DNA of 64,000 nucleotides from a virus. Below, piece after piece: positions 3,993 to 44,701 of the stretch. The stretch lies in the IMG/VR virus record IMGVR_UViG_3300032116_000064, positions 1 through 64,000 of that record; one strand, 5' to 3'. Position numbers and translations under genes: made by a program. A model generated the notes under the pieces. That model searched no databases, had not been told where the DNA came from, and saw only the letters and a program-made list of their open reading frames with translations. Within the stretch, counting starts at the first letter, position 1, and every line of letters starts with the position of its first letter.

Positions 3993-4001
3993 GTGTATAA
4001 T
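3993..4001 (+). promoter_or_regulatory. Putative phage-class promoter, GTGTATAAT, ahead of the sigma operon
   Basis: The sequence GTGTATAAT lies 19 bases before the ATG at 4021, in the divergent gap. The same core recurs ahead of structural blocks at 26340, 29360, 38437 and 44693. No good -35 hexamer is present here, and this copy lacks the upstream T-run seen in the others. It also contains a perfect TATAAT and could equally be read by the host sigma factor. Confidence 0.5.
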
Positions 4002-4020
4002 GTTGTATAGGAGACATTTT

Positions 4021-4188
4021 ATGAAAAAGAAACAAACAATTGAAACACAATTGGATTGTCGCGCTACAGCTTCTTTACAAGAACAAATAGACTCTGACTT
4101 GCGTCATGAGGATCGTTCTATTGCATCTTTATTAAACGAAGATAAGCACAAGGATAACGACGATAATGACGCCAAAGATAGCGATTGA
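4021..4188 (+). CDS. Small protein, possible ribbon-helix-helix DNA binder (55 aa)
   Basis: ATG at 4021 is preceded by a clear AGGAGA ribosome site seven bases upstream; an earlier in-frame ATG has none. The protein starts MKKKQTIETQLDCRAT, followed by SLQEQIDSDLRHEDRSIASL. This is a strand and two helices arranged like Arc/MetJ ribbon-helix-helix repressors. The tail is highly acidic (repeated Asp). The match is a pattern judgement only, so a regulator of the divergent promoters is possible but unproven. It overlaps the next gene by 23 bases, and begins the rightward programme right behind a GTGTATAAT promoter motif. Confidence 0.7.
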   Translation: MKKKQTIETQLDCRATASLQEQIDSDLRHEDRSIASLLNEDKHKDNDDNDAKDSD

Positions 4189-4942
4189 AACTTGTAAGCA
4201 GGGCGACCTAGATAATAATGATATTATTCTATGTGGACTACTTGATATAGAAAAGGGAAGCATAGTACTATCAGAGGCTAAATATTACAATTATATATCT
4301 GATGAAAACTCTATAGCTAATACTATTGGATTCGGCCCCGACAATAAGTTCTTCTACAAAATTTCTTCTTATAAAGATAATGCTGTTGTTGGATATGAGA
4401 AGGGTATTGGATATGCCTATGAACATAATAATCAAATCTACTTTAAGCGTGAAGTCCCCCTAATTTACGGTAAAAACGAAAATCACGTTCAATTTATTAA
4501 AAGCTCGTCTAGATTTTATTTTCCAGAAGATTCCATTAGCGTAATAGTCTCTGAGATTCCACCGAGTTTAGCATTACTATATCATGCTCAAAATTCTTTA
4601 GTGGTGGCTAGAGATCCATTTTTTCCAGTTACTCTATCATTACCAAATGATTCTTTACTAGCTACTATTAACGACAATATATGCGCACTATCTTTTGATA
4701 GTAAAGAGTTTAGCGATTACGTGTCGGAAGCTTTATCTAAATACTCAAAACAGCTATCTTTGCGAACTAGTAAGCTTAACGTCAACAAGTTGGCAGCAAA
4801 GCAGTTACAATTAGAACCGTCATCTGGCACTAATGCTAAAAAGGGGACTTTTATTTACGATGAAGAAACTGATACCGTGCAGTTTTATAACGGTGAGAAA
4901 TGGAGAACTCTACAGTGGGTAGACGAAGAAAAAGCGGAATGA
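4166..4942 (+). CDS. Unknown protein with virion-type C-terminal motif (258 aa)
   Basis: The protein begins MTPKIAIETCKQGDL and is mainly beta-rich. Its last 45 residues contain GTFIYDEETDTVQFYNG followed by KWRTLQW. This resembles the short 'value-display' repeat (GTxxYdxxTnxxxxYnGxxW) often seen in phage tail and fibre proteins. No catalytic motif is visible, and I do not recognise the rest. It overlaps the gene before and ends with ATGA, sharing bases with the start of the sigma factor, so these genes are translationally coupled. A virion or assembly protein is the best guess. The ribosome site AAGGA lies 11 bases from the ATG, slightly long. Confidence 0.75.
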   Translation: MTPKIAIETCKQGDLDNNDIILCGLLDIEKGSIVLSEAKYYNYISDENSIANTIGFGPDNKFFYKISSYKDNAVVGYEKGIGYAYEHNNQIYFKREVPLIYGKNENHVQFIKSSSRFYFPEDSISVIVSEIPPSLALLYHAQNSLVVARDPFFPVTLSLPNDSLLATINDNICALSFDSKEFSDYVSEALSKYSKQLSLRTSKLNVNKLAAKQLQLEPSSGTNAKKGTFIYDEETDTVQFYNGEKWRTLQWVDEEKAE

Positions 4943-5427
4943 AAATCCCTAAAAATATGACAGAGGCCCAAGTTATAGATCAGATTAACATTGTTGTTAA
5001 TAGAATGTCGGCCCGCTATACATTCCACGGTTATGAGGTTGATGATATAAAACAAGAAGCTTTCATGATTTGTATGGACGCACTGGAGCGATATGATAGC
5101 AACCGCCCCCTTGAGAATTTCCTAGCAGTTCACTTATCTAACAGGCTTAAAAACTTTGTTCGTGATAACTTTTACACTAAGGGCGAAGAAGAAAAGAAGC
5201 GAGTTCTAAAACCAAGCAGTTTGTCTTATGAAGATTTTACCCCTAGTACAGAATACAACAATGACAATAAAATAGATGCCAGAAGTTTACAAGACACCGT
5301 TGACCGCAAGTTACCTTCAGAATATCGCGCAGATTACTTAAAGTTAATCAATGATGTATACGTGCCAAAGAAACGAAGAGAAGAAATCATAGCGATAATT
5401 AAGGAGTTGTTAGATGAAGAAGGGTAG
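4939..5427 (+). CDS. T4 gp55-like late sigma factor (162 aa)
   Basis: The start at 4939 (MKIPKNMTEAQV) overlaps the previous stop as ATGA. Residues about 25-77 match sigma-70 region 2 as found in T4 gp55. RYTFHGYEVDDIKQE is followed by a helix ending ALERYD and then a NFLAVHLSNRLKNFV helix. gp55 has the equivalent RFNFSGY...KQE block. In that family region 2 binds the core polymerase coiled coil and the -10 element of late promoters. The C-terminus is charged and helical (KKRREEIIAIIKELL); whether it binds a sliding clamp as in T4 cannot be told. Family length is similar (gp55 is 185 aa). It probably directs host RNA polymerase to the GTGTATA-type motifs listed here. Confidence 0.75.
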   Translation: MKIPKNMTEAQVIDQINIVVNRMSARYTFHGYEVDDIKQEAFMICMDALERYDSNRPLENFLAVHLSNRLKNFVRDNFYTKGEEEKKRVLKPSSLSYEDFTPSTEYNNDNKIDARSLQDTVDRKLPSEYRADYLKLINDVYVPKKRREEIIAIIKELLDEEG

Positions 5428-6199
5428 GATTTCTAAAGACGAGGAACGTATTATCGGGCGACTGATTGATCACGTTACCGTAGAGGATATTGCCAAGCAA
5501 CTCGACCGCGATGTTGAATCGGTTGACAACTTCGTTAAGCGTAAGTTCAAGGTTGGACTATCAAACGAAGAAGCCGCCGCATATTCACTAGAAGACCGCC
5601 CCTACTGGATTGAACTAGAAAACCAGTTTACTCCTTCTGAGTTAGAGCTTTTTAAGTATCACTGGTCGCGCATAATTTCGCAGTTCAAAGATGACGTTTT
5701 TCCAACAGAAGAACTACAGGTAGTAGATGTTATTAAGCTAGAAATACTCATGAACCGCTGCTTGAAGAGTAATAAGGATAATCTCAATGAGATGACCGTT
5801 TTAGAAAAAATGTTAGCAGACGAACGCGCCGTCGATAAGGATCAACGTGACCACGACTACGTTTTAAATCTAGAGCGTCAGCTTGCTTCATTACGGGCTT
5901 CGCAAGAAGCCCTCAATAGGGATTACCGCGAACTCCAAAGCAAAAAGGCTAGTATGTTACGCGAAATGAAGGGAACCCGTGAACAGCGTATTAAACGACT
6001 AGAAGATAGTAAGCAAAGTTTCACCTCTTGGGTTGCTAATTTAATGCAAGATCCAGAAACTCTAAAGCGATACGGGATCGAAATGGAAAAGATGAGGCTT
6101 GCTATGAATAAGGAGCGTGAGCGACTAAGTGCTTTTCATCAATATGAGGATGGGCAGATTGATCAACCATTCTTAACTCCAGATACAGTAATAGATTAA
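5414..6199 (+). CDS. Candidate terminase small subunit (HTH plus coiled coil, 261 aa)
   Basis: AAGGAG lies seven bases before the ATG, inside the end of the sigma gene (14-base overlap). Residues about 8-45 form a helix-turn-helix (ERIIGRLIDHVTVEDIAKQL then a second recognition helix with many Lys/Arg). Residues about 125-215 are strongly charged heptad-like sequence (LERQLASLRASQEALNRDYR), a long coiled coil. An N-terminal HTH followed by an oligomerising coiled coil is the usual plan of terminase small subunits, and TerL is encoded downstream. However, five kilobases of other genes intervene and no family signature is certain. A different DNA-binding packaging or transcription protein remains possible. 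Confidence 0.5.
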   Translation: MKKGRISKDEERIIGRLIDHVTVEDIAKQLDRDVESVDNFVKRKFKVGLSNEEAAAYSLEDRPYWIELENQFTPSELELFKYHWSRIISQFKDDVFPTEELQVVDVIKLEILMNRCLKSNKDNLNEMTVLEKMLADERAVDKDQRDHDYVLNLERQLASLRASQEALNRDYRELQSKKASMLREMKGTREQRIKRLEDSKQSFTSWVANLMQDPETLKRYGIEMEKMRLAMNKERERLSAFHQYEDGQIDQPFLTPDTVID

Positions 6200-6200
6200 A

Positions 6201-7457
6201 ATGCACGACAATATTTTATACATCGGAAGTGGCCGATCAGCAAAACTCATTGAGAAAATAGATTTATCTAAATATACTATTGTTTGTGTAAATAATGCAT
6301 GGAGACTTTTCGAGAATTCTAGATTTGACGTTTGGATTCATAGCGGAGATTTTCCTAATGAACACAGACCAAAGAATAAAAACTTTGATTTAGAAGTTAG
6401 TTATAAACAATATAGCAAATCTATTGAAAATATAGTTAATAAATTAAATTTACAATGTAAATCACCGCAGCATTACTTAGGATATACTATTTTTTTTAAT
6501 GGTTTATATTGGATTTGTGATACATTCAATCCAAAAACTATTTCATTACTAGGATTTGACCATGATTATAACCCAGAAAAAATTCAAAAATGGAACGATA
6601 ACAAAAAACCAACTCCACAAAATTCATTTTTAAAACCAAAAAATCAATCTATTAAAGATTGGTCAGAAGAATTCTTTTCTGGTATGGAATCTGATTTTTT
6701 TTATGGACATGGAACACCAGATCCACTGCGACTTGGTATGGATCACTTAAAGCAAAAAATGTCTCAAGCCTTAAATCTATTAGAAAGACTTGGAATAGAA
6801 ATTATAAACTTATCCCCAGTTAAATCTGAATTTAATGAAGTTATTCCTACAAAATTAGAAAAAAATAATATGATAATAAATGAAGTAAATAGAATAAAAA
6901 CAGAAAGCAAAATTTATAAAACTCGCGGTGGCGTTATGTCAGATACATTAAAGTCTGTAGGAACAGGCGATATTTTTGAATTTGGTGTTTTTACTGGCAA
7001 TTCCCTAAGATTTATTTCTAAGTATATGCCAAATAATAAAATATATGCATTTGATTCTTTCGAAGGACTTCCAGAGGCATGGCCAGGATCTAGAGGAGTG
7101 ACGCATAAAAAGGGACATTTCAATGTTAATGGTAATCTTCCAAAAATCGATAATTCAAATATTTCTTATGTTAAAGGTTTCTTTGAAGACACTCTTCCAT
7201 CATTTTTGCAAAACTATAATAATACCGTTTCTTTAATTCATATAGATTGCGATATATATTCATCAACTAAAACTATATTACATTATATGAAACCGTATAT
7301 AAAAAAAGATACTGTTATAATATTTGATGAACTTATTGGATATCCAGACTTTGAAATAAATGAAATAAAAGCGTGGATGGAATTCATAGATGAAACACAA
7401 TTACAATATAAATATTTGTATTCAGCTAAAGAGCAAGTATCTTTAAAAATAATATGA
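6201..7457 (+). CDS. Bifunctional protein: nucleotide-type N-domain fused to TylF-like methyltransferase (418 aa)
   Basis: The N-terminal half (about 1-215) starts ILYIGSGRSAKLIEKIDLS and includes CVNNAW and LLGFDHDY. This plan resembles DUF115 or sialyltransferase-like Rossmann domains that handle sugar nucleotides. The C-terminal half (about 240-418) is a class I SAM-dependent methyltransferase of the TylF/Methyltransf_24 type: motif I FEFGVFTGNSL (259-269), AFDSFEGLPEAW (283-294), IHIDCDIYSST (346-356) and IIFDE (373-377). TylF-type enzymes O-methylate sugars. It has no clear ribosome site and begins one base after the previous stop, so it probably depends on coupling. The cassette context suggests modification of glycans on host surface or virion. 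The N-domain assignment is weaker than the methyltransferase. Confidence 0.75.
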   Translation: MHDNILYIGSGRSAKLIEKIDLSKYTIVCVNNAWRLFENSRFDVWIHSGDFPNEHRPKNKNFDLEVSYKQYSKSIENIVNKLNLQCKSPQHYLGYTIFFNGLYWICDTFNPKTISLLGFDHDYNPEKIQKWNDNKKPTPQNSFLKPKNQSIKDWSEEFFSGMESDFFYGHGTPDPLRLGMDHLKQKMSQALNLLERLGIEIINLSPVKSEFNEVIPTKLEKNNMIINEVNRIKTESKIYKTRGGVMSDTLKSVGTGDIFEFGVFTGNSLRFISKYMPNNKIYAFDSFEGLPEAWPGSRGVTHKKGHFNVNGNLPKIDNSNISYVKGFFEDTLPSFLQNYNNTVSLIHIDCDIYSSTKTILHYMKPYIKKDTVIIFDELIGYPDFEINEIKAWMEFIDETQLQYKYLYSAKEQVSLKII

Positions 7458-7816
7458 ATAAACAAGGTAAAGTTTGGGGAAATACGGTAGAGTTATTCAC
7501 CAAAAATAATGTATCTATACATAGAATAGAAATTAATAAAGGCTCTTGTTGCTCCAAACATTATCATAATTATAAATACAATACGTTTTATGTTGAAACA
7601 GGAAAGATAAAAATACAAGAGTGGAAAAATGACTATAATCTTCTAGATGAAACTATCTTATCAAAAGGAGAAATGTGTCAAGTTCCTCCAAAAAACAATC
7701 ATAGATTTATTGGGCTTGAAGACAGTATAGTATATGAAATATACCATGTGGAATTATGTGAAAAAGATATCATCAGAGAAGATGTTGGAAAGGAACAATA
7801 TGAAAACTTACAATGA
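7454..7816 (+). CDS. Small cupin protein (120 aa)
   Basis: One cupin barrel is visible. HYHNYKYNTFYVETGKIKI (36-54) has the HxH...E...G layout of cupin motif 1, with metal-ligand candidates His 36, His 38 and Glu 48. VPPKNNHRF (77-85) is motif 2 with His 83. The size fits single-domain sugar isomerase or epimerase-like cupins. It overlaps the previous stop as ATGA and the next start by 17 bases. Lying between methyltransferases and a GDP-mannose dehydratase, it may act on an activated sugar, or as a sensor for one. The exact reaction cannot be read from sequence. Confidence 0.75.
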   Translation: MNKQGKVWGNTVELFTKNNVSIHRIEINKGSCCSKHYHNYKYNTFYVETGKIKIQEWKNDYNLLDETILSKGEMCQVPPKNNHRFIGLEDSIVYEIYHVELCEKDIIREDVGKEQYENLQ

Positions 7817-8336
7817 AATACAGGGCTGGTTTGATTATCCAAACACATTTGATTTTTTACTATCAACTATACCAGATAATGGTATCTTTGTTGAATGTGG
7901 AGCTTGGCTAGGTTCTAGTTCAGCATATCTATGCGATAAGGCTGGAGATAGGATAAAAATTTATATCGTGGATACATGGCAAGGTTCTCCAGATGAACTG
8001 GAAACTACTCATAAGCTAGCCACAGAAACAGATATCTACACAATCTTCTTAGATAATATGGGTAGTCGTAACTTTACTCCATTACGTATGGACTCTTCTC
8101 TTGCTTCTAAACAATTTGAAGATAATTCATGTGATGTTGTTTATATAGATATGACTCATTCATACGAGGCTGTTAAAAAAGATATTGAATGCTGGCTACC
8201 AAAGGTAAAAGTTGGTGGATACATTTCTGGACATGACTATGGAAATACTCACGGTGTAGTCATGGCAGTAAATGAATTTTTCAGCGGTAAGTTTAAAATA
8301 ATGGATAGCAGTTCTTGGGTAGTAAAAAAGGAATAA
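7800..8336 (+). CDS. SAM-dependent methyltransferase, Methyltransf_24 type (178 aa)
   Basis: The start chosen is ATG 7800 (MKTYNEIQGWF), which has AAGGA five bases upstream; a longer in-frame start lies deeper inside the cupin gene without such support. Residues 29-40 (IFVECGAWLGSS) form the SAM-binding motif I. IYIVDTWQGSP (55-65) is the acidic-loop motif, followed by VVYIDMTHSYEAV and the VGGYISGHDYG turn typical of this family. Members methylate sugars or small hydroxylated substrates. With the fused methyltransferase upstream, two distinct methyl transfers in one glycan pathway are plausible. The substrate is unknown. Confidence 0.8.
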   Translation: MKTYNEIQGWFDYPNTFDFLLSTIPDNGIFVECGAWLGSSSAYLCDKAGDRIKIYIVDTWQGSPDELETTHKLATETDIYTIFLDNMGSRNFTPLRMDSSLASKQFEDNSCDVVYIDMTHSYEAVKKDIECWLPKVKVGGYISGHDYGNTHGVVMAVNEFFSGKFKIMDSSSWVVKKE

Positions 8337-8339
8337 ATT

Positions 8340-9425
8340 ATGAAGGCAATTATATTTGGAGTTACTGGGCAGGATGGAAGCCATCTAGCAGACCTACTAC
8401 TAGAGAAGAACTATCAAGTAGTTGGTGTATCACGAAGGAGCAGTACAGACAATACACAAAGAATAAAGCATATATTGAATCATTCTAGATTCCAGTTAGT
8501 CGAGGGAGACATAACAGATTCTGGTAGTGTTGCTAATGTCCTTAATAATTACGAACATGTAGATGAAGTCTACAACCTCGCTGCCCAATCTCATGTAGGA
8601 ACCTCATTTTCTCAGCCGCTGCTTACTTGGGATATTACCGGAAAAGGTTGCCTAAATATCTTACAGCATATTAAGGATTATATGCCATCGACCCGATTTT
8701 ATCAAGCCTCTTCTAGTGAAATGTTTGGGGCTTGTTATGATAGGGACCGAGAAGGAAATAAATACCAAGATGAAAATACTAAATTTTTACCACAGTCTCC
8801 ATACGCTATTGCTAAGTGTGCCGCTCATCACTCTGTTAGATTATATCGTGAAGCCTACGATTTACACGCAAGTTGTGGTATTTTATTTAATCACGAAGGC
8901 CCGAGGCGTGGCGATAACTTTGTAACCAAGAAAGTCATCAACTGGCTTGCCGATTTTGTACACTGGATGTGTGATAATAATGTAACAAATACATCGTATT
9001 TAGAATCCGACGAAAATTACATTATGTATAATGATGTGACATTTCCTAAATTAATGCTGGGCAATCTAGATTCTTATAGAGATTGGGGCTATGCTGGAGA
9101 TTATGTCGAGGCTATGTGGCTAATGCTTCAGCAAGACGATCCAGACGATTATGTGATATGCACAGAAAAAACCCACTCAATACGCGATCTACTAGATGCC
9201 AGCTTTGGTTATTTTAATATCACAAATTGGAATAAATATGTTGGTCAGGACGAAAGATACTATAGGCCAGCCGAAGTAAATTACCTTAAAGGAAAAGCAG
9301 AAAAAGCAAGAGTTAAGTTGGGATGGACTCCAAAACATGACTTTAATAGTCTTGTAAAACTTATGATAGAAGAGAAATTAAATGAAAAGTTATCGCATAA
9401 TGATAGACATATCAAATGTGTTTAG
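8340..9425 (+). CDS. gmd: GDP-mannose 4,6-dehydratase
   Basis: This short-chain dehydrogenase converts GDP-D-mannose to GDP-4-keto-6-deoxy-D-mannose, the branch point to GDP-fucose, GDP-rhamnose and GDP-perosamine. The Rossmann GVTGQDG loop is at residues 7-13. NADP-selecting SRRSS is at 31-35. The catalytic set is Ser 126, Glu 127, Tyr 155 and Lys 159 (SSSEMFG and YAIAK). The family block NHEGPRRGDNFVTKK follows. Length 361 aa matches bacterial GMD. No reductase or epimerase partner is visible in the window, so the keto sugar must be finished by host enzymes or genes elsewhere. Together with the methyltransferases it points to a methylated deoxy-sugar. Confidence 0.93.
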   Translation: MKAIIFGVTGQDGSHLADLLLEKNYQVVGVSRRSSTDNTQRIKHILNHSRFQLVEGDITDSGSVANVLNNYEHVDEVYNLAAQSHVGTSFSQPLLTWDITGKGCLNILQHIKDYMPSTRFYQASSSEMFGACYDRDREGNKYQDENTKFLPQSPYAIAKCAAHHSVRLYREAYDLHASCGILFNHEGPRRGDNFVTKKVINWLADFVHWMCDNNVTNTSYLESDENYIMYNDVTFPKLMLGNLDSYRDWGYAGDYVEAMWLMLQQDDPDDYVICTEKTHSIRDLLDASFGYFNITNWNKYVGQDERYYRPAEVNYLKGKAEKARVKLGWTPKHDFNSLVKLMIEEKLNEKLSHNDRHIKCV

Positions 9426-9630
9426 CAGAATAAAACACCTATTCCTTAAATCATACAATAGCCCATTTCCAACTATATTTTTGAGTGCAGATGATCCAGA
9501 TGATGCATGTTTTACAGTTCTGAATGATCTTATAAAGATTATCATGAAACAAAATTCGTCAATAGAAATGAGAATAGTTTGTATAGAAATTAGAAAAAAA
9601 TCTAGAATAGACAAAATATATCAATTATGA
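9382..9630 (+). CDS. Hypothetical protein (82 aa)
   Basis: It overlaps the dehydratase by 44 bases and ends in ATGA shared with the HNH gene, so it fits the tightly packed operon. A GAGA lies seven to ten bases before the ATG. The product begins MKSYRIMIDISNVFSRIK, is mostly helical and ends with a basic stretch (EIRKKSRIDK). No domain is recognised. Overlap on both sides and a modest ribosome site support it as real, but no homology can be claimed. Confidence 0.6.
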   Translation: MKSYRIMIDISNVFSRIKHLFLKSYNSPFPTIFLSADDPDDACFTVLNDLIKIIMKQNSSIEMRIVCIEIRKKSRIDKIYQL

Positions 9631-11018: not shown

Positions 11019-13003
11019 AAAAAGATAAGTTAAAAATTATAGATGAGGCTTGGCTTGGATTAGATGTCATAGATACAGACATTTTTAATCCAATGTCTAT
11101 CTTAAATCCTTCTGAAGACGATTTTCATCTCAAACTATCTTGGCTTATGAGTAGGCCAGAGTATTTGCCATTCTTATGTCATCAAGTATTGAATATTCAA
11201 CTACTTCCATCTCAGTCTCTCATCATCAATGAACTTTGGAATAGAAAATTCCCTATGCTTGTTGGTAGTCGAGGTCTTGGAAAATCATTTAAATTAGCTC
11301 TTTATTCTATACTTCGTGGAATGTTATTACCCAAAAGAAAAATTGTTATAGTCGGTGCAGCATTTAGACAATCAAAAGTTCTTTTTGAATATATGGAAAC
11401 TATATGGCGTAATGCCCCGTTATTAAGGGATATGTGTGATAGTAATAGTGGTCCCACTAGAGATGTTGATAGATGCACCATGAGAATTAATGAGAGTGTT
11501 ATAACATGCTTACCATTAGGTGATGGTCAAAAGATTAGAGGTCAACGTGCTAACGATATTATTGCAGACGAGTTTGCTTCTATTCCTAGGGATATATTTG
11601 AAAATGTGGTCGCAGGCTTTGCTGCTGTTAGTGCTGATCCTGTACAAAATGTTAAGAGAATGTCTGCAAAAAAGAAGGCAGCTGAATTAGGTATAGAAAT
11701 AGAAACAGAAGAAGAGAATCCAGAAATAAAAGACAATCAAATTATATTGTCTGGTACAGCATACTATGACTTTAATCACTTTGCCACATATTGGAAGAAA
11801 TGGAAATCAATAATAAAAAGTCGTGGTAATATAGCAAAACTAACTGAGGTATTTGGTGGAGAACAGCCGCCAGACACATTTGATTGGCGTCAATACTCTA
11901 TAATACGAATGCCTTATGAACTCTTACCAGTTGGGTTTATGGATGCTGACCAAGTGGCACGATCAAAAGCTACCGTTCATGCTGGTATTTATCAAATGGA
12001 ATATGGGGCTTGTTTTACTAGAGACAGTCAAGGATTCTTTAAGAGATCTCTTATAGAGTCTTGTGTTGTTGGGAATAATGAAACACCTATATTTGATTCT
12101 AAGAAGGACATAATAAAATTTGAAGCTTCTCTTATTGGCGATGTCAATAAAAGATATGTTTTTGGTGTTGACCCAGCATCTGAAGTTGATAACTTTAGTA
12201 TTACTATAATAGAGATTCATGGAGATCACAGAAGAATAGTTCATTGCTGGACTACAACTAGACAAGAACATAAAGAGAAAGTAAAAAAGGGTTATGCTCA
12301 AGAATCAGATTTCTATGCATACTGCGCCAGAAAAATTAGGGATTTAATGAGACTATTTCCATGCGTTCATATTGCTATGGATGCGCAAGGTGGTGGTGTT
12401 GCAGTTATGGAATCGTTACATGACAAAGATAAAATCAAAGATGGCGAGATGGCAATTTGGCCCACTATTGATGACGATAAGCCTAAAGATACAGATGGAG
12501 AAAGAGGATTGCATATATTAGAAATGTGTCAATTCGCTAAGTATGATTGGCTGGCAGAAGCTAATCACGGTATGAGAAAAGATTTTGAAGATAAAGTTTT
12601 GTTATTTCCATTCTTTGACTCTATAACACTTGGATTGTCAAACTCTGAGGATGGTTTAAAAAACAGAATGTTTGATACCTTAGAGGAATGTGTCATGGAT
12701 ATAGAAGAACTAAAAGATGAATTATCTATGATTCAGATGACTCAAACATCTAATGGCAGAGATAGATGGGATACTCCAGAGGTTATAGTTGGTACTGGTA
12801 AAAAGAGTAAAATGCGAAAAGATAGATATTCTGCACTTTTAATGGCAAATATGGCAGCAAGAACATTGCAGCGTACTCCAACTCCAGAAGCATATGAGTT
12901 TTATGGTGGTTTTGCTACCGGTGGCCACGTTCCAGTTAAAGAAGACGAGAAGCTTTATACTGGCCCAAGTTGGTTCTCTGATAACATGAAAGATGTGTAT
13001 TAA
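11015..13003 (+). CDS. terL: Terminase large subunit (662 aa)
   Basis: The DNA-packaging motor has an N-terminal ATPase. Walker A is GSRGLGKS (84-91) and Walker B is IIADEF (182-187) with Asp 185 and catalytic Glu 186. A coupling SGT motif is at 246-248. The C-terminal RNase H-like nuclease shows GVDPASE (Asp 386), AMDAQGGG (Asp 456) and RKDRYSALL (Asp 603), the expected acidic triad. It cuts concatemeric DNA and pumps it through the portal. Length is within the T4 gp17 range. ATGA overlap with the protease gene shows co-translation. The portal gene follows after a 39-base gap. Confidence 0.95.
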   Translation: MKKDKLKIIDEAWLGLDVIDTDIFNPMSILNPSEDDFHLKLSWLMSRPEYLPFLCHQVLNIQLLPSQSLIINELWNRKFPMLVGSRGLGKSFKLALYSILRGMLLPKRKIVIVGAAFRQSKVLFEYMETIWRNAPLLRDMCDSNSGPTRDVDRCTMRINESVITCLPLGDGQKIRGQRANDIIADEFASIPRDIFENVVAGFAAVSADPVQNVKRMSAKKKAAELGIEIETEEENPEIKDNQIILSGTAYYDFNHFATYWKKWKSIIKSRGNIAKLTEVFGGEQPPDTFDWRQYSIIRMPYELLPVGFMDADQVARSKATVHAGIYQMEYGACFTRDSQGFFKRSLIESCVVGNNETPIFDSKKDIIKFEASLIGDVNKRYVFGVDPASEVDNFSITIIEIHGDHRRIVHCWTTTRQEHKEKVKKGYAQESDFYAYCARKIRDLMRLFPCVHIAMDAQGGGVAVMESLHDKDKIKDGEMAIWPTIDDDKPKDTDGERGLHILEMCQFAKYDWLAEANHGMRKDFEDKVLLFPFFDSITLGLSNSEDGLKNRMFDTLEECVMDIEELKDELSMIQMTQTSNGRDRWDTPEVIVGTGKKSKMRKDRYSALLMANMAARTLQRTPTPEAYEFYGGFATGGHVPVKEDEKLYTGPSWFSDNMKDVY

Positions 13004-13042
13004 AAAGTAGCATTCCAATTACATTCCAATTAAGGAAAAACT

Positions 13043-15133: not shown

Positions 15134-15134
15134 A

Positions 15135-19766: not shown

Positions 19767-19776
19767 GAGGTGAAAT

Positions 19777-26264: not shown

Positions 26265-26339
26265 CCTCCCGACCGCTACTAATATGCTTATATATTTAAT
26301 TACTAGAATGATCTCATTTAATACGTTTATGTCTTTTTT

Positions 26340-26348
26340 GTGTATATT
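26340..26348 (+). promoter_or_regulatory. Putative late promoter ahead of the capsid operon
   Basis: TTTTTTGTGTATATTATCTT lies in the 110-base gap before the protease-scaffold gene, 26 bases from its ATG. It shares TTTTnGTGTATA with the motifs at 29360, 38437 and 44693. No -35 hexamer is seen, as expected for a gp55-type late promoter. Confidence 0.65.
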
Positions 26349-26374: not shown

Positions 26375-27778
26375 ATGAAGATATATGCACAAGAAATAGC
26401 TGACGGACTATCAGAACGTATCAAAAGTGATACGACTGTAGCTTATTGTTCGCAAGCAGTATTAACAACCGAAACAAATTCAATTAAGCGATTGATTGAT
26501 AAAGTAAAGGCTTCTAGTAATCCTAATCAAATTGATCTTTACTATATCAAATCAATTCTTGTTTCCACTGGATGGAATAAAAACGATGACGTTTTCGATC
26601 CGCAACAAACTTGGGCGGCTCGTAGTACTCCAGAGGATAAACAATTCAATTTAATGCACAATGAAAATGATATTATAGGACATATCACTGGAAGTTACGT
26701 TGTTGATCAAGATGGTAATAAAATCGGCGCAACTGAAAACGATGCCGCCCCATCTCAGTTCGATATTGTAACCGAAGCTGTAATTTATAACAGTTGGACT
26801 AATCCAGAGAACAGAGAGAGGATGAGTAAGATTATATCAGAGATAGAGCAAGGCAAGTGGTTCGTTTCGATGGAATGTTTATTCGCCGGTTTTGACTATT
26901 CTGTTAAAGATAACTCTGGACAAACCAAGGTTATAGCGCGTAGTGAAGATTCGGCATTTTTGACAAAACATCTTAGAGCATACGGTGGAACCGGAGAATA
27001 CGAAGGCTATCAAATTGGTAGATTACTAAGAGATATTTCTTTTTCTGGTAAGGGTTTAGTATCCAGACCAGCAAATCCAAGAAGTATAATTCTTGATTCT
27101 AGCAAGGCTTTCTCTGTTAATGAAGAACAAACTATTTCCAATGTTTCAGAAGGAGAAGTTAATATGTCAGAAAACAACGAAGAGAAGCAGCTAGAAACTG
27201 CCCCAGTGGCAGAAGAGGCTGTACAGGTTGTGGCTGAAGAAGTCAAAGTGGAAAACAACGCTTCAGAATTAGAGGCCGCTTTAGCAGCTAAAGATACTGA
27301 AATTCAAGCTTATGCTTCAAAGGTCGCAACATTAGAAGAGACTCTTGCTAGTTTACAAAAAGAACTAGCAGCAGTCAACGAAGAAATGAAAGATATGAAG
27401 AAGAAAGAAAAAGATCGCAGCCGCAAGGAAAAGCTAGTTATGGCTGGCTTTGAAGAAGCCGAAGCTGATGAATCAATTTCTTTATATGATGCTCTTAGTG
27501 ACGAAGCCTTCGAAGCAGTGGTTGCTGCTATGAAGAAAAAGTGGGGAGCTATGAAAGACAAGATGATGAAAGAAGAAAAGAAAGAGATGGCTTCCGAAGC
27601 AGAAGTTGTCACAGAGGAGAAAACAGAAGTAGCAGAAGAATCAACTGAAGCTATTTTTGAAGAAGTCAAAACAACAGAAGCCACTCTTGTAGCTGCTTCT
27701 GATGAAGACGAAGAAATAGAGTCCACAAGAGCTAGTGTGGCAGAGTGGCTAACAAACAACGTTTTACGTAATAAGTGA
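26375..27778 (+). CDS. Prohead protease-scaffold fusion (467 aa, candidate)
   Basis: Residues 1-243 form a globular domain with LMHNENDIIGHITGSYVV and GKWFVSMECLFAGFDYS. The arrangement, with a conserved His and a Ser in a strand followed by GLVSRPANP, recalls prohead proteases. From about 244 the chain is very rich in Glu, Lys and Ala, with a heptad stretch (VATLEETLASLQKEL) and an acidic tail, as in scaffolding proteins. A strong internal ribosome site and ATG at 27164 would give a free scaffold. This is the lambda C/Nu3 arrangement. It precedes decoration and capsid genes, where protease and scaffold are expected. The exact protease clan is uncertain. Confidence 0.75.
   Translation: MKIYAQEIADGLSERIKSDTTVAYCSQAVLTTETNSIKRLIDKVKASSNPNQIDLYYIKSILVSTGWNKNDDVFDPQQTWAARSTPEDKQFNLMHNENDIIGHITGSYVVDQDGNKIGATENDAAPSQFDIVTEAVIYNSWTNPENRERMSKIISEIEQGKWFVSMECLFAGFDYSVKDNSGQTKVIARSEDSAFLTKHLRAYGGTGEYEGYQIGRLLRDISFSGKGLVSRPANPRSIILDSSKAFSVNEEQTISNVSEGEVNMSENNEEKQLETAPVAEEAVQVVAEEVKVENNASELEAALAAKDTEIQAYASKVATLEETLASLQKELAAVNEEMKDMKKKEKDRSRKEKLVMAGFEEAEADESISLYDALSDEAFEAVVAAMKKKWGAMKDKMMKEEKKEMASEAEVVTEEKTEVAEESTEAIFEEVKTTEATLVAASDEDEEIESTRASVAEWLTNNVLRNK
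27164..27778 (+). CDS. Nested in-frame scaffolding protein (204 aa)
   Basis: AGAAGGAG at 27148-27155 lies eight bases before an in-frame ATG (MSENNEEKQLE), a better ribosome site than most in the window. The product equals residues 264-467 of the larger gene: acidic N-region, coiled coil, KKEKDRSRKEKL basic patch and acidic C-terminus. Scaffolds guide capsid assembly and are then removed by the protease. Nested scaffold genes inside a protease gene are known from lambda (C and Nu3). Expression of both forms is inferred from the site, not shown. Confidence 0.7.
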   Translation: MSENNEEKQLETAPVAEEAVQVVAEEVKVENNASELEAALAAKDTEIQAYASKVATLEETLASLQKELAAVNEEMKDMKKKEKDRSRKEKLVMAGFEEAEADESISLYDALSDEAFEAVVAAMKKKWGAMKDKMMKEEKKEMASEAEVVTEEKTEVAEESTEAIFEEVKTTEATLVAASDEDEEIESTRASVAEWLTNNVLRNK

Positions 27779-27793
27779 TAAAGGAGAAAAACT

Positions 27794-28261: not shown

Positions 28262-28289
28262 GAATAATAAAATAAAAGGAGAATTAAAC

Positions 28290-29300
28290 ATGCCAATAAC
28301 AGAAAGACCCAGCGATGATTTTATCGCTCTCCTACGCAAGTCAGGGGATGCCGATATGAATGTAGCAATGGCCGCTCAACGTGAGTTTGCCAAAGCACTA
28401 GAACTCCCACTACGTAAGGGTGTTTTAGTTGGTAATATCCTCGGTAATATTTTCGAAACCATCAACGTGGAAGCCGGTTCAACAACTGAATTTCCTCTAG
28501 ATCTTATCTCCCCCGGCCTTGAAGGTGAGCATGTTGCTTACACCAATCCCGGTCACGGTAGAATTCCAGAGCGTTCAGTCGAAGGCGACTACGTTATGAT
28601 TCCAACCTACACAATCGCTTCATCGGTTGACTATCTACTTCGTTTTGCCCGCGAAGCCAGATGGGATATCGTTGGTCGTGCAATGCAGGTTATGGAAGCT
28701 GGTTTCACCAAGAAGATGAACGATGACGGCTGGCACACACTTCTCGCCGCTGGCGTTGATCGTAACATCCTAGTCTATGATGCTGATGCAACAGCTGGTC
28801 TATTCTCAAAGAGATTAGTATCACTTATGCAAACAGTTATGCGTAGAAACTCTGGTGGCAACTCGGCATCAGTTGGTCGTGGCCGTTTAACTGATATGTA
28901 CGTTTCACCAGAAGCGTTAGAAGATATCAGAAATTGGGGTCTAGATCAAGTTGATGATGTAACTCGTCGTGAAATCTACAACTCTGCTCCAGACGGTTCA
29001 GTTATAACAAGAGTATTTGGTGTTAATCTTCATGACCTAGATGAACTAGGCGAAGGTCAACAGTACCAAAACTTCGTTACATCTGATCTCGGTGGCTCAC
29101 TTGCTACTGGTGGCGATGTTGAACTCGTAGTTGGTCTTGACCAATCAATGAGTGATAGCTTCGTTATGCCCGTTAAGCAACAGCTACAGGTCTTCGAAGA
29201 TCCAGCACTACATCGTCAGCAACGCGCTGGCTACTACGGCTGGGCTGAACTCGGTTTTGGTGTTCTAGACAATCGTAGAGTCATCCTTGGCTCATTCTGA
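28290..29300 (+). CDS. Major capsid protein, HK97-type (336 aa)
   Basis: Position after scaffold and decoration genes, a strong AAGGAG site, codon bias towards high expression and a terminator directly behind all mark the main capsid gene. Sequence features include GNIFETINVEAGSTTEFPLD in the N-arm/E-loop region and TIASSVDYLLRFAREARWDI for the spine helix. The P-domain pattern DMYVSPEALEDIRNWG is followed by DQSMSDSFVMPVKQQL and the C-terminal WAELGFGVLDNRRVI strand. 336 residues is usual for the HK97 fold. It builds the icosahedral shell and is probably trimmed at the N-terminus by one of the proteases. Confidence 0.85.
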   Translation: MPITERPSDDFIALLRKSGDADMNVAMAAQREFAKALELPLRKGVLVGNILGNIFETINVEAGSTTEFPLDLISPGLEGEHVAYTNPGHGRIPERSVEGDYVMIPTYTIASSVDYLLRFAREARWDIVGRAMQVMEAGFTKKMNDDGWHTLLAAGVDRNILVYDADATAGLFSKRLVSLMQTVMRRNSGGNSASVGRGRLTDMYVSPEALEDIRNWGLDQVDDVTRREIYNSAPDGSVITRVFGVNLHDLDELGEGQQYQNFVTSDLGGSLATGGDVELVVGLDQSMSDSFVMPVKQQLQVFEDPALHRQQRAGYYGWAELGFGVLDNRRVILGSF

Positions 29301-29326
29301 TATATTTTAATATATCTGTCGCACTT

Positions 29327-29359
29327 AAGCCACTCTCAAGAGATTGGGGGTGGCTTTTT
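29327..29359 (+). terminator. Strong intrinsic terminator after the major capsid gene
   Basis: A 13-bp stem (29327-29339 with 29344-29356, including two G-U pairs) closes on a GAGA tetraloop and ends in TTTTT. It lies 26 bases behind the capsid stop and directly abuts the next promoter-like motif. Confidence 0.9.
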
Positions 29360-29368
29360 GTGTATAAT
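29360..29368 (+). promoter_or_regulatory. Putative late promoter ahead of the second fibre block
   Basis: GTGTATAAT preceded by TTTTT lies immediately after the capsid terminator and 43 bases before the ATG at 29412. It shares the core of the motifs at 26340, 38437 and 44693. Confidence 0.7.
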
Positions 29369-29411
29369 ACTTGTAGATAACGTTATTTTAGGATAAAAAT
29401 AGGAGAATATT

Positions 29412-30119
29412 ATGGCCGCACTATCGGATTATCTTGAGTCTGGTCTTTTAAGTCATATTTTTCGCAACGCTGCATTTCCAAGACCATCTTCAATAGCAAT
29501 TGCTTTAACTAGCGGAGTACCATTAGATTCTGACACTGGTCAGACTATCCCAGAGTTACCGTCTGGCGTTTTAAATGGTAACATATGGACTTCAACAAAC
29601 TATAAAAGAATACCGCTTGGACCTCCAGCCGCAAGTGGGGATAATACTTGGCAAAGTATTGGTATAAATGCTAATGGGTCATATAGTGTTTCTGGAAGAC
29701 GCCATGATAATACGCCGGGATATTTTTATCCACTATACTTAACAGCATCTGCTGCCAATGATGCTAGTGCTATAGCTGCAAATGTTGTTAATGGTAATAG
29801 TACTGTATTTTATTTTTCAGATTTTCCAAATATTCCTTTCTTTGCTCCAAGCGGAGGAAATTTATTTCAATCTGGTGTTCCTACCAAATCTTCTTATCCA
29901 GACTATGAAGGCAATGGGTTTATTAGAAACAAAAATCAAATTGTGTTTAACACAGCTTTAACTGAATGGGGCTGGGTTTCTGGCATAGCAATTGTTGACC
30001 ACGATACTGTTGGTTCTGGTAATTTATTAATGTATTCTAAACTAACTAATCCAAGATATGTATTTTTAGGAGATAATATTCGATTTGATATTAATTCATT
30101 AGAAATTAGCCTCAAATAA
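29412..30119 (+). CDS. Conserved phage virion protein (235 aa)
   Basis: The N-terminus MAALSDYLESGLLSHIF then SSIAIALTSGVP matches a family of phage structural proteins that open with a short helix and 'P.slyvaLtts' strand. A central insert with GYFYPLYLTAS and a C-terminal W-G-W-V-SGIAIVD block follow. Members are usually called tail or fibre proteins without a proven role. The AGGAGAA site precedes the ATG. It heads the transcript that follows the capsid terminator, and is followed 12 bases later by the YadA-like fibre. Confidence 0.75.
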   Translation: MAALSDYLESGLLSHIFRNAAFPRPSSIAIALTSGVPLDSDTGQTIPELPSGVLNGNIWTSTNYKRIPLGPPAASGDNTWQSIGINANGSYSVSGRRHDNTPGYFYPLYLTASAANDASAIAANVVNGNSTVFYFSDFPNIPFFAPSGGNLFQSGVPTKSSYPDYEGNGFIRNKNQIVFNTALTEWGWVSGIAIVDHDTVGSGNLLMYSKLTNPRYVFLGDNIRFDINSLEISLK

Positions 30120-30131
30120 TTGGAATAAAAA

Positions 30132-33428: not shown

Positions 33429-33437
33429 GGACTAATA

Positions 33438-37780: not shown

Positions 37781-37831
37781 AAATACCTATAATATAAGTA
37801 AAAGGATAAGTTATATCTGAAAGGAATAAAT

Positions 37832-38431: not shown

Positions 38432-38436
38432 TTTTG

Positions 38437-38445
38437 GTGTATACT
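38437..38445 (+). promoter_or_regulatory. Putative late promoter ahead of the neck genes
   Basis: TTTTGGTGTATACTATACT lies six bases after the previous stop and 36 bases before the ATG at 38482. It matches the TTTTnGTGTATAnT consensus. Confidence 0.65.
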
Positions 38446-38481
38446 ATACTAGATAAACTAACCTAATAACAGGGACACATT

Positions 38482-39000
38482 ATGTCTTGGCGTAGTCAAA
38501 TACCATTAATTGTTAGGCATCTAATAAATGACCTTGACCAAGAAAAATACAAGTATTCTGACGAAAGAATAGAAACATCTATTCTAGTTAGCGCACAATT
38601 GCTGTCAATTGAAACAGATTTTACTAATTCATACATTATAGATATTGCTAACGGTGGGTTATCTCCAGATCCAACTGAAGGTATGATAGATAACGCCTTC
38701 ATAAATCTTACTGCTCTTAAATCAGCATGTATTATAATTGGAAGTGAGTTAAAAACAGAAGCTTCAAATGCTATATCTATAAAAGATGGTCCTTCAGCAA
38801 TAGATCTACGTGGAGTAGCATCTACGTTATCTATTCTATATAAAGATCTATCTGATAAATATTCTAAACTGTTATTAGATTATCGCGCTGGCAATAGTAT
38901 TGCTGGACATGCAATTCTTGGCCCATATAGTCCCGCTAGTGATTATGTCGTAAGAACGCATGGCGATTACGATTCTCGGGGTGGTTATTTTAGATATTAA
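38482..39000 (+). CDS. Head-tail connector-type protein (172 aa)
   Basis: It begins MSWRSQIPLIVRHLINDLD, then KYSDERIETSILVSAQLLSIE: an all-helical start followed by 'ALKSACIIIGSELKTEA' and 'STLSILYKDLSDKYSKLL'. Helical adaptor proteins of this size (gp6/gp15-like) bind under the portal, and their genes usually precede the tail genes. The C-terminus ends with aromatic DSRGGYFRY. Position at the start of the neck block supports the call, but no family signature is decisive. Confidence 0.6.
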   Translation: MSWRSQIPLIVRHLINDLDQEKYKYSDERIETSILVSAQLLSIETDFTNSYIIDIANGGLSPDPTEGMIDNAFINLTALKSACIIIGSELKTEASNAISIKDGPSAIDLRGVASTLSILYKDLSDKYSKLLLDYRAGNSIAGHAILGPYSPASDYVVRTHGDYDSRGGYFRY

Positions 39001-39012
39001 TGGAGGCTCGAA

Positions 39013-39978: not shown

Positions 39979-39985
39979 ATAAAAT

Positions 39986-42085: not shown

Positions 42086-42591
42086 ACATTTTATTATCTA
42101 AATTACAAAATATTATACCTATTAAAGCTATAGTGGAAAGAAATTCTACTATTGATATAGAATATTTTATAGACAATATGCCATCTGAGTCTCAATTATT
42201 ACAAATTAGTAATATTATAGATCAGTGGCCTCTTGAAAAAATAAAATTAGAAAAAATTAAGTTATTAGATGAATCTTGGAAAGTAAGACTTAGAACTGGA
42301 TGGGAAACTCCAGATGGATATAATCTCGGTATAGATATATCTGACGTTACTCTTTTGAATGGAGCTTTCACATTGGCTAAGGAAGCGTCTTTAATGGGTA
42401 TGAATAATCCCACATCTATTGTAGATTTAGATGGGGCTTCACATTCACTATCTTTACAAGATCTAACTACGTTAATGTTGCAATACGGACAAGCAAGAGC
42501 ATCTTTAAGTAATTCATATGCATCCATAAAACAATCAATAAATATGGCAACTACAACAGAAGAATTAGAAGCTATAAACACTAATATATAG
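42079..42591 (+). CDS. Tail/fibre accessory protein (170 aa)
   Basis: The second half carries a pattern like the DUF4376 domain: GWETPDGYNLGIDISDVTLL, FTLAKEASLMG, SIVDLDGASHSLSL and LTTLMLQYGQAR. That domain is found in many phage tail-fibre-region proteins and is helical. The N-terminal 70 residues are helical with a VERNSTIDIEYFI strand. It overlaps the previous gene by seven bases. It may be a fibre chaperone or attachment protein; the exact role is unknown. Confidence 0.7.
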   Translation: MLNILLSKLQNIIPIKAIVERNSTIDIEYFIDNMPSESQLLQISNIIDQWPLEKIKLEKIKLLDESWKVRLRTGWETPDGYNLGIDISDVTLLNGAFTLAKEASLMGMNNPTSIVDLDGASHSLSLQDLTTLMLQYGQARASLSNSYASIKQSINMATTTEELEAINTNI

Positions 42592-42599
42592 GTATTAAT

Positions 42600-43082
42600 A
42601 TGCCAGTAAACGTACCAGAAAGTGTATTCGACAAGTACTATGATGTTATAGATTCTACTTTTGACATATTTGGAGTAGTTTGTAAACTTGTTACTACCAA
42701 TAAAATAGAAGAAGTAATATATAATCCTAGCAATAATATACCAGAAAGAAATTCTATTAATGCTCATCGTATAAACAATCCAGATTATGAGCGATCCAAT
42801 AAAATCATAAGGGAAGTAGAAGTATATAATGAGATAAAATTAAAAGTATACTGGAATCCAAGAGATTGGATCAACGTTGCTGGAGATATACAAGTTCCCA
42901 ATAATGTGATACAAACAATCGGCTTTATGAAAGATTTGCCACTAATATTGAAATCTAAAGCTTTAATAGTCCATAAAGGAATAGAAGACTACAAAGAAAT
43001 GAGATTTGAAAGAATGGGTGAGCATATACCAGTTGGATTAAGACAAGATAGATATTTTTCTTGTTTATGGAGTAGAGCATGA
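42600..43082 (+). CDS. Head-closure/neck protein candidate (160 aa)
   Basis: The beta-rich protein contains VCKLVTTNKIEEVIYNPSN, NEIKLKVYWNPRDWINV and GFMKDLPLILKSKALIV. Head-closure or stopper proteins of siphophages are small beta barrels at exactly this gene position, between the connector and tail terminator. It overlaps the next start as ATGA. No signature motif is visible, so the call rests on order and fold impression. Confidence 0.55.
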   Translation: MPVNVPESVFDKYYDVIDSTFDIFGVVCKLVTTNKIEEVIYNPSNNIPERNSINAHRINNPDYERSNKIIREVEVYNEIKLKVYWNPRDWINVAGDIQVPNNVIQTIGFMKDLPLILKSKALIVHKGIEDYKEMRFERMGEHIPVGLRQDRYFSCLWSRA

Positions 43083-43714
43083 GTATCTCTCTAAAATTAT
43101 TAGATTCAGTAGATGAAGTAGAGAGCAAAATATTATCTGCTATTTCTTCGAATTTTAATTCCTTAATGAAATCAAACAAGACTAAAATATTTAATGAAAT
43201 CAAACTCTTAATTCCTTCATGGATATCTAATCAACCAGAAATTAGTTCTTTATCTTCTAGTGACCCCCAATCATTAGTTGGACAATTCGGTATAACTATT
43301 GACCCATCTTCGATTATAAATAGTATAATATCCGCTGTTGTTAACTCATGTTCCGTATCTATAGTTCCATATGACAGTAAACTAAAAAATGGCGGAATTG
43401 AGATCAATATACAACCAGATAATTTTGCTAATCTCATTGGACTTCCACAAGGGCATTCAACTTATTTAGGTGGCGACCTACATTGGTTAGATTGGTTATT
43501 AAATAGGGGTGATGAAATAATAGTAGTTGGTTATCAATACAACCCACAAACTGGTTTAGGCAGATCTAAACTAGGAAATATGAAATCTGGCGGATCTTTT
43601 AGAGTGCCTCCACAATTTTCTGGTACTCAAGACAATAACTTTATAACTCGCTCATTAGTAGGGGCCGAACAAGAAAAACAAATAGCCAAGATCTTTGAAA
43701 AAATACTAAACTAA
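43079..43714 (+). CDS. Neck/tail-completion protein candidate (211 aa)
   Basis: An N-terminal helical half is followed by a C-terminal half containing HWLDWLLNRGDEIIVVGY, GLGRSKLGNMKSGGSFRVPP and NNFITRSLVG. This last run resembles the 'GrGRsGlGiM...g..wrVP..faGtadnNfitral' block of phage virion morphogenesis proteins (HK97 gp10-like and Mu gpG-like). Such proteins sit at the head-tail interface. Gene order agrees. Confidence 0.6.
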   Translation: MSISLKLLDSVDEVESKILSAISSNFNSLMKSNKTKIFNEIKLLIPSWISNQPEISSLSSSDPQSLVGQFGITIDPSSIINSIISAVVNSCSVSIVPYDSKLKNGGIEINIQPDNFANLIGLPQGHSTYLGGDLHWLDWLLNRGDEIIVVGYQYNPQTGLGRSKLGNMKSGGSFRVPPQFSGTQDNNFITRSLVGAEQEKQIAKIFEKILN

Positions 43715-43715
43715 A

Positions 43716-44687
43716 ATGAATTATTTAAACTTAAAGGGTTTTGATAGCGTATTCGACACAACTCTTAACAATGAGTTGCAAGATAATATTGTTGAATTTT
43801 TAGAGTGGTCCCTTTTAGAAAAGGGTAACTATATGAATGTTTCACTTGGGGAATTATCTCCAGAAGGAATAGATTATAGTAAACTAAGAATATCTTCTAA
43901 TTCATCTTTTCCAAGCGGTAAGGCTTGGGAGGGATTTAGACAAAACTGGATTTGGCAAAGTGGCGTTTCTTACAATCCTCCTCCCATAGTAGGGAATAAT
44001 CATGCTATACCCGGTATTTCTGGAATATATGTAAATAATGTATTTTATCCATCAAATACTAGTGGAACATATGCTCACAAAGTAGATTATTTCAATGGTC
44101 GCGTTGTATTTAATAACATAATCCCAACAAATAGTGTAGTAAAAGCTGAATATAGTTATAGATATATAAATGTAGTATATGCTAATAGTTTACCTTGGTT
44201 AACAGAAGTTCAGTATTCATCCCTAAACTTAGGGGAAGACTTTGATGATCTTAATAAAGGTAAATATGATATTCCCGCAGAAGCTAGAATTCAATTGCCT
44301 GCTATAGCCATTGAGATTGTTCCAAGAAGAACATTGAAAGGTTATCAACTCGGCGGTGGTCAGTGGGTAGATACCGACATTTTGTTCCACTGTTTAGCTG
44401 AAGATGAATATACTCGTAATAAATTAGTAGATATTATATCCTTACAAAATGATAAAACTATATATATGTTTAATAGTAATGCTATAGCAAGGAGTGGGTC
44501 TTTTCCGTTGGATTATCATGGTTTTCCTGTTTCTGGAGCTTTAAGATACCCAGACTTGGTAGAAAATTACTATCGCGGAAATTTACGCCTTAAAAACTCT
44601 AGTGTTCAAAATATGAAAGTAGTAAATAGTAATTTTTACGCTGGTATTGTGAGAATGACATTAGAAACAATCGAAACATCAATATAA
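43716..44687 (+). CDS. Tail-completion/structural protein (323 aa)
   Basis: A beta-rich protein beginning MNYLNLKGFDSVFDTTL, with a central EYSYRYINVVYANSLPWL block and VQYSSLNLGEDFDDL. The ARIQLPAIAIEIVPRRTLKGYQLGGG stretch is followed by VDTDILFHCLAEDEYTRNKLVDII. The second half reads like tail terminator or completion proteins, which take 'ILFHxLaede' modules. It lies directly upstream of the tail tube gene. It is the last gene before a late-promoter motif. Not clearly assignable to a named family. Confidence 0.6.
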   Translation: MNYLNLKGFDSVFDTTLNNELQDNIVEFLEWSLLEKGNYMNVSLGELSPEGIDYSKLRISSNSSFPSGKAWEGFRQNWIWQSGVSYNPPPIVGNNHAIPGISGIYVNNVFYPSNTSGTYAHKVDYFNGRVVFNNIIPTNSVVKAEYSYRYINVVYANSLPWLTEVQYSSLNLGEDFDDLNKGKYDIPAEARIQLPAIAIEIVPRRTLKGYQLGGGQWVDTDILFHCLAEDEYTRNKLVDIISLQNDKTIYMFNSNAIARSGSFPLDYHGFPVSGALRYPDLVENYYRGNLRLKNSSVQNMKVVNSNFYAGIVRMTLETIETSI

Positions 44688-44692
44688 TTTTA

Positions 44693-44701
44693 GTGTATAA
44701 C
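44693..44701 (+). promoter_or_regulatory. Putative late promoter ahead of the tail tube gene
   Basis: TTTTAGTGTATAACTAACT lies just after the previous stop and 36 bases before the ATG at 44738. It matches the TTTTnGTGTATA core. Confidence 0.65.

What the first reader, a model, noticed from the sequence alone, without database searches (positions are those of the whole stretch)
3993..44701. A probable phage-specific late promoter class, TTTTnGTGTATAnT, paired with a gp55-like sigma factor
The intergenic gaps before the capsid operon (26340), second fibre block (29360), neck block (38437) and tail tube gene (44693) share a T-run followed by GTGTATA and a short AT tail. All are on the plus strand, 26 to 43 bases before a start codon and without a -35 box. 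The gap before the sigma operon (3993) has the same GTGTATAAT core without the T-run. A gp55-like sigma (region 2 with RYTFHGYEVDDIKQE) is encoded at 4939-5427. In T4, gp55 directs polymerase to a -10-only element TATAAATA. Here the element seems to be GTGTATAnT, which I do not know as a described promoter class. The core is seen directly; the link to the sigma factor is inference.
Basis: partly seen in the sequence, partly recalled or inferred. Interest (0 to 1): 0.8.

Follow-up and report, generated by a model that had tools for sequence, protein, structure and literature searches.

The report
Late phage promoter GTGTATA, co-evolving sigma
A large group of uncultured phages switches on its late genes from a short DNA signal (GTGTATA) that is almost certainly read by the phages' own small sigma factor, and related lineages have changed that signal at several promoters of the genome at once, giving a natural series for asking how a sigma factor changes what it reads.

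Summary
The window is part of a 101,537-base phage record. GTGTATA occurs at 3993, 26340, 29360, 38437, 44693 and, outside the window, 76854: six plus-strand copies in 745 non-coding bases before starts, 0.14 expected (P about 1e-8). Counted without regard to place, the motif is not enriched. Relatives decide it. Before the head-operon gene, 90 of 102 distinct leaders keep GTGTAT while the rest of the gap diverges. In 40 of 46 sigma loci a GTGTATA sits at the head of the sigma operon. In 13 whole records 73 of 247 copies lie 8-60 bases before a start (controls 0-4). Early-strand promoters in the same genomes are TTGACA-N16/17-TATAAT, so there are two classes. In one clade the triplet before the -10 changed from GTG to GAG or GCG at several orthologous promoters within a genome, with the same syntenic sigma gene, itself altered. 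That implies a phage-encoded reader, most likely the sigma. Corrections: the T-run is an optional A/T-run; the sigma matches the phiEco32 gp36 family better than T4 gp55; the closest described promoter is phiEco32 tAATGTAtA. Function is inferred; no RNA data exist.

The parts
3993..4001 (+). GTGTATAAT promoter core of the sigma operon, no T-run
   Evidence: 40 of 46 sigma loci have a GTGTATA about 690-1075 nt upstream of sigma at the operon head; a second conserved TG-containing A/T-rich box lies about 20-12 nt upstream of it
4021..4188 (+). first small gene of the sigma operon (start reassigned from 3988)
   Evidence: SD AGGAGA and ATG conserved in relatives; function unknown
4166..4942 (+). 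gene before sigma, poorly conserved
   Evidence: 28.7-55% identity in relatives or not found; no Pfam match
4939..5427 (+). phage sigma factor: region 2 plus a C-terminal helical part, no recognisable region 4
   Evidence: Pfam Sigma70_r2 E 4.6e-6; A1 alignment; AF2 model and Foldseek match to SigE N-terminal domain
5414..6199 (+). D5-like transcription regulator, next to sigma in every record where sigma was found
   Evidence: phrog_323, best E 4.2e-7, 9 of 12 members; synteny in 18 records
26335..26348 (+). late promoter TTTTTGTGTATATT of the head operon
   Evidence: 90 of 102 distinct orthologous leaders keep GTGTAT
26375..27778 (+). first gene of the head operon (looks like a prohead protease/scaffold fusion, by eye only)
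   Evidence: no Pfam or PHROG match; the gene at 28290 is a weak match to a major head protein, phrog_2522
29327..29356 (+). intrinsic-terminator-like hairpin whose T-tract overlaps the next promoter
   Evidence: the same GGCTTTTTTGTGTATA arrangement in relatives
29355..29368 (+). late promoter TTTTTGTGTATAAT before the gene at 29412
   Evidence: orthologous in 9 records
38432..38445 (+). late promoter TTTTGGTGTATACT before the gene at 38482
   Evidence: orthologous in 6 records
   Evidence: orthologous in 9 records

Best explanation
The element is the core of a phage-specific promoter, consensus WWWWnGTG-TATAnT-N4-TAG(A): a -10 hexamer, a GTG triplet directly upstream at -15 to -13, an A/T run in front of it, no -35, and an initiator about 6-7 bases downstream. 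The small phage sigma factor (4939-5427; region 2, no recognisable region 4) most likely takes over the host core polymerase and recognises GTG-TATAnT, probably with the D5-like protein encoded next to it as a partner. Early genes on the other strand are read first by the host sigma-70-type holoenzyme from TTGACA-N16/17-TATAAT. The sigma operon itself starts with GTGTATAAT plus a further upstream box, so it is probably boosted by its own product once started. Shown: the motif, its positions, its conservation, the two classes, and the changed core at orthologous promoters of single genomes. Inferred: transcription start, timing, and recognition by the sigma.
For: Location and enrichment in the record itself. 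Conservation upstream of orthologous genes in about 100 relatives, the head-operon protein down to about 40% identity. 73 of 247 GTGTATA copies in 13 records are intergenic and 8-60 nt before a start, against 0-4 for unrelated control 7-mers. In an unguided search GTGTATA is the most enriched 7-mer before genes in G000, G001, G004, G007, G011 and G014. Initiator-like TAG at fixed spacing. GTG before intergenic TATAnT: 41/103 on the late strand against 7/127 on the early strand, P 1e-10; TTGACA with at most one mismatch: 31/120 early non-GTG sites against 3/41 late GTG sites, P 0.014. No multi-subunit RNA polymerase gene in 17 records. Sigma in 15 of 17 first-set records, the other two lacking that end of the late cluster. 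Changed core: G026 uses GCGTATT, G027 and G029 mostly GAGTAT, G028 GCGTAT; in G027 and G028 the head-operon, portal-size (about 700 aa) and opposite-strand (about 208 aa) genes changed together, in G026 the head-operon and opposite-strand genes, in G029 the portal-size (GAG) and head-operon (GCG) genes. The GAG/GCG leaders fall in one clade of 21 (SH-aLRT 99), apart from one outlying GAG leader (L388); the clade also holds two GTG leaders. Their sigmas are altered in the region 2 block: PLENFL becomes PFENFI in G027, G028, G029 and L461, while a GTG relative nested in the same clade (G018) keeps PLENFL.
Against: No transcript 5' ends, no infection data, no known host. Sigma changes and core changes both follow the phylogeny; the within-clade contrast rests on a handful of genomes. 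Two loci with 2.5 kb of upstream sequence (L032, L034) lack the sigma-operon site. Some late gaps have no element. For G027, G028 and G029 no changed core of promoter-like context was found ahead of sigma.
Confidence: 0.82

Rival explanations
1. The host's own primary sigma reads GTGTATAnT as an extended -10 promoter without a -35, and the phage sigma serves something else.
For: TATAnT fits the sigma-70 -10 consensus; extended -10 promoters without -35 are known, and late promoters of Listeria phage CKA15 were described that way (TGCTATATTA, PMC12282133).
Against: The same genomes have consensus TTGACA/TATAAT promoters on the early strand where GTG is rare. GTG abuts the -10 and is out of register with TGn. 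The triplet changes to GAG or GCG at several orthologous sites in one lineage while TATAnT often stays.
Confidence: 0.08
2. The D5-like DNA-binding protein beside sigma reads the GNG triplet and A/T run and recruits polymerase carrying either sigma.
For: Strictly syntenic with sigma in all 18 records where sigma was found; phrog_323 is annotated as a transcriptional regulator.
Against: The triplet lies at -15 to -13, inside the usual footprint of sigma rather than at a usual activator site; sigma is more diverged than the D5-like protein in the changed lineages (G026: 62 of 292 bits for sigma, 273 of 465 for D5-like).
Confidence: 0.08
3. The element is an RNA signal in leaders (processing, stability or translation), not a promoter.
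For: It lies close to Shine-Dalgarno sequences in short leaders.
Against: No Rfam match in the window; distance to the start varies from about 5 to about 100 nt while the distance to the TAG initiator is nearly constant; one site sits directly on a terminator T-tract, where a new start is needed.
Confidence: 0.02

Closest known systems
phiEco32 gp36 sigma and its middle/late promoters (tAATGTAtA; PMC8948821)
   Same: Phage sigma without region 4 reads a single element with no -35; middle and late genes; host sigma-70 for early genes; both elements share TGTATA; the sigma family here matches the same PHROG (phrog_1740, 36 of 40 members).
   Different: Core is (W-run)nGTGTATAnT, not AATGTATA; direct profile alignment with gp36 is not significant; no relative of the capsid-operon protein or sigma among 50,697 phage records; the sigma here is paired with a D5-like protein and preceded by its own element.
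T4 gp55 and T4 late promoters (8-bp TATA box at -10, no -35; PMC2988020, PMC7892883)
   Same: Small sigma with region-2 homology only, -10-only late promoters, host core polymerase, early/late switch; the model here also has region 2 followed by extra helices.
   Different: Element differs and TATAAATA is not enriched; homology to gp55 not detectable; no bacterial-type beta clamp found (gp45-type not tested); gp33 not sought.
Late promoters of Listeria phage CKA15, P100-like (TDTGCTATATTA; PMC12282133)
   Same: -10-centred late promoters without a -35, proposed switch by phage sigma and anti-sigma factors.
   Different: Canonical extended -10 (TGn) there, GTG directly on the hexamer here.

Membership tests
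sigma-70 family, region 2 | Region 2 fold and sequence | tested here: met
   Pfam Sigma70_r2 26.8 bits, cut-off 24; AF2 helices 22-37, 47-64, 71-90; Foldseek SigE N-terminal domain 8b3z_A, 70 columns, 1.9 A, probability 1.00, though E 0.07
phiEco32 gp36-type phage sigma | Membership of phrog_1740 | tested here: inconclusive
   36 of 40 members match, best 1.4e-7, window member 1.1e-3; gp36 itself 1.9e-45; hhalign of A1 against gp36 probability 0.4%
phiEco32 gp36-type phage sigma | No region 4 | tested here: met
   No Pfam region 4 match; no close region-4 superposition among the Foldseek hits; the C-terminal helices remain unassigned
phiEco32 gp36-type promoters | Consensus tAATGTAtA | tested here: not met
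   nGT in place of AAT; only TGTATA shared
phiEco32 gp36-type promoters | Single element, no -35 | tested here: met
   Late GTG sites: 3 of 41 have TTGACA with at most one mismatch; capsid-leader profile shows no -35
phiEco32 gp36-type promoters | Transcription start 6-8 bp downstream | not testable with these tools
   Conserved TAG at the expected place only
T4 gp55 / late transcription | TATAAATA element | tested here: not met
   15 copies in the record, both strands alike; 7 of 276 before starts in 13 records
T4 gp55 / late transcription | Sequence homology to gp55 | tested here: not met
   hhalign probability 3%; phrog_234 in 2 of 40 members, best 0.0086
T4 gp55 / late transcription | Sliding clamp and gp33 co-activation | tested here: inconclusive
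   No PF02768 beta clamp in 18 records; gp45-type clamp and gp33 not searched
host sigma-70 extended -10 promoter | TGn directly upstream of TATAAT | tested here: not met
   GTG at -15 to -13, i.e. TG one base too close to the hexamer

The most novel reading that the evidence does not exclude
A region-2-only phage sigma reads a GNG triplet abutting the -10 in place of a -35, and lineages of one phage clade have switched the middle base (GTG, GAG, GCG) at several promoters of a genome, tracked by few residues of region 2 (PLENFL to PFENFI): a natural specificity-switch series for a minimal sigma factor.
Probability: 0.45. Interest if true: 0.75.

Novelty: new variant of a known kind. Interest (0 to 1): 0.63.

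Why it matters
It links that signal to a small sigma factor, and it supplies related phages in which the signal has changed at several sites at once. How a sigma changes its promoter without losing its regulon is an open question that such a series makes directly testable with purified proteins.

Tried and rejected
Counting GTGTATAnT over the whole window: no excess, so location was used instead. Phage-encoded RNA polymerase as reader: no PF04997 in 17 records; PF00940 also found nothing, but its control rang nowhere, so it is uninformative. T4 gp55 kinship: built a 17-member gp55 alignment, not significant. Rfam elements: none. Sequence relatives of sigma and capsid-operon protein in cultured phages: none. 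Host: one TerL relative (76%) on a contig of a SAR202 MAG and one (54%) in a Flavobacteriales MAG; binning is too weak to name a host, and GTGTATA is not enriched in the SAR202 MAG as a whole. G005 was left out of the sigma argument because its end carries a TerL of 40% identity while its portal is 92%, so it may be chimeric. Literature: no paper found that describes GTGTATA as a phage promoter.

Full report
What was checked. The window is bases 1-64000 of a 101,537-base virus record; the rest was fetched. Late genes run on the + strand up to 77.6 kb and replication genes (DnaB, primase, DNA polymerase III alpha) on the - strand beyond it.

The motif. Exact GTGTATAnT occurs 5 times in the window, no more than chance. 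With the T-run there are 4 sites, all +, against 1.36 expected. The signal is in the placing: 6 of the 12 + strand copies of GTGTATA in the record fall in 745 non-coding bases just before + strand starts, 0.14 expected, P about 1e-8. One of them, at 76854, is outside the window and has an A-run in place of the T-run.

Conservation. The sigma gene brought in 55 loci, TerL more than 580, the head-operon gene more than 590. Before the head-operon gene the TTTTGTGTATA(A/T)T string stands almost unchanged in gaps that have otherwise diverged; over 102 distinct leaders, including distant ones, 90 keep GTGTAT and 73 GTGTATA, while six control strings occur in 0-7. Column statistics show a preference for T at -5 to -2 (counted from the first G), an invariant GTGTAT, TATAnT, and a G/A initiator about 15 bases downstream of that G. 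Sigma loci have a GTGTATA about 690-1075 nt upstream of sigma in 40 of 46 cases, without a T-run, with GTGTATAAT nearly fixed and a second TG-containing box centred about 16 nt further upstream. That box sits near -31 and recalls either a -35 or a T4 MotA box in place; this is a resemblance only, from memory.

Two promoter classes. In 13 whole records GTGTATA has 247 copies, 99 intergenic, 73 of them 8-60 nt before a start; unrelated control 7-mers give 0-4. On the early strand the intergenic TATAnT sites instead often carry TTGACA at 16-17 nt (31 of 120 with at most one mismatch), and GTG is rare there (7 of 127 against 41 of 103 on the late strand, P 1e-10). So the host-type promoter and the GTG promoter are separate. 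Some GTGTATA promoters are on the opposite strand, among them one before a 208-residue gene whose product looks like a virion or surface protein (by eye).

The sigma. It has region 2 by Pfam and by model; the linker and C-terminal helices match nothing firmly. It is the only clear Sigma70_r2 protein in most records. PHROG matches favour the phiEco32 gp36 family over T4 gp55, but the window member alone is weak (1.1e-3) and direct profile alignments with either are not significant. A D5-like regulator follows it in every one of the 18 records where sigma was found.

Co-variation. Among distant relatives the core differs at the same place: GCGTATTT, GGCGTATT, GGAGTATT, GTGTATTA, GTGTAG. Whole records show that the change is not confined to the head operon: an unguided 7-mer search puts GTGTATA first in much of the main group, GCGTATT first in G026, TGGAGTA first in G029 and among the enriched strings in G027, and GGCGTAT among the enriched strings in G028; a table of cores by record is close to diagonal. 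In L441 both the sigma's own leader (379) and the head-operon leader (8568) read GTGTAG. By orthologue, head-operon, portal-size and opposite-strand promoters changed together in G027 (GAG) and G028 (GCG), head-operon and opposite-strand promoters in G026 (GCG), while in G029 the portal-size promoter is GAG and the head-operon promoter GCG. On a tree of the head-operon protein the GAG/GCG rows form one clade of 21 with two GTG rows (SH-aLRT 99); one further GAG row, L388, lies outside it on a long branch. The sigmas of that clade are altered in the region 2 block; positions 71 and 75 (PLENFL to PFENFI) separate the four GAG/GCG sigmas compared from the 55 sigmas labelled GTG, and the nested GTG member keeps PLENFL. 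In that comparison nine other columns outside this block also separate the sets, and the G026-type sigmas (also GCG) keep L at both positions but differ elsewhere in the block (HLSNRLKN to SVSKRLIS), so naming residues 71 and 75 is a suggestion by place, not a statistical result. A change at several sites at once needs a trans-acting reader made by the phage; sigma is the natural candidate, the D5-like neighbour the only other one seen.

Verdict. Real, well-conserved promoter class; sigma as reader likely but unproven; new variant of the known kind of single-element phage-sigma promoters, nearest to phiEco32.

Noticed in passing
L010:5231-6799 and L010:8314-9936 (record 89231-90799 and 92314-93936, - strand): DNA polymerase III alpha appears split into two ORFs, one with PHP and NTPase domains, one with the finger domain, with other ORFs between them; could be an intein, intron or gene split.
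   Followed up: no
29327-29368: An intrinsic terminator-like hairpin whose T-tract runs straight into the next GTGTATA promoter, an arrangement kept in several relatives (GGCTTTTTTGTGTATA).
   Followed up: partly
5414-6199: The D5-like protein beside sigma is more conserved than sigma itself (70-97% in the main group) and strictly syntenic; its role with sigma is unknown.
   Followed up: partly
window 3970-3985 and the same place in sigma loci L012-L062: A second conserved box (TG followed by A/T-rich bases) about 20-12 nt upstream of the GTGTATAAT before the sigma operon, absent from late promoters; possibly an activator box or a weak -35.
   Followed up: partly
G005 (IMGVR_UViG_3300002835_000015; L256-L263): Its right end holds a TerL of 40% identity and a diverged sigma while its portal is 92% identical to the window's: possibly a chimeric contig.
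   Followed up: no
opposite strand of relatives, for example G001 (L241) and G027 (L499): A conserved leader of about 75 nt (GTGTATA ... TAGGAA..GGAC..AAAGGA) before a glycine/serine-rich protein of about 208 residues.
   Followed up: partly
L010:1449-4228 and 11671-12546; window 6201-8336: Several glycosyltransferase and methyltransferase-like genes in the phage.
   Followed up: no
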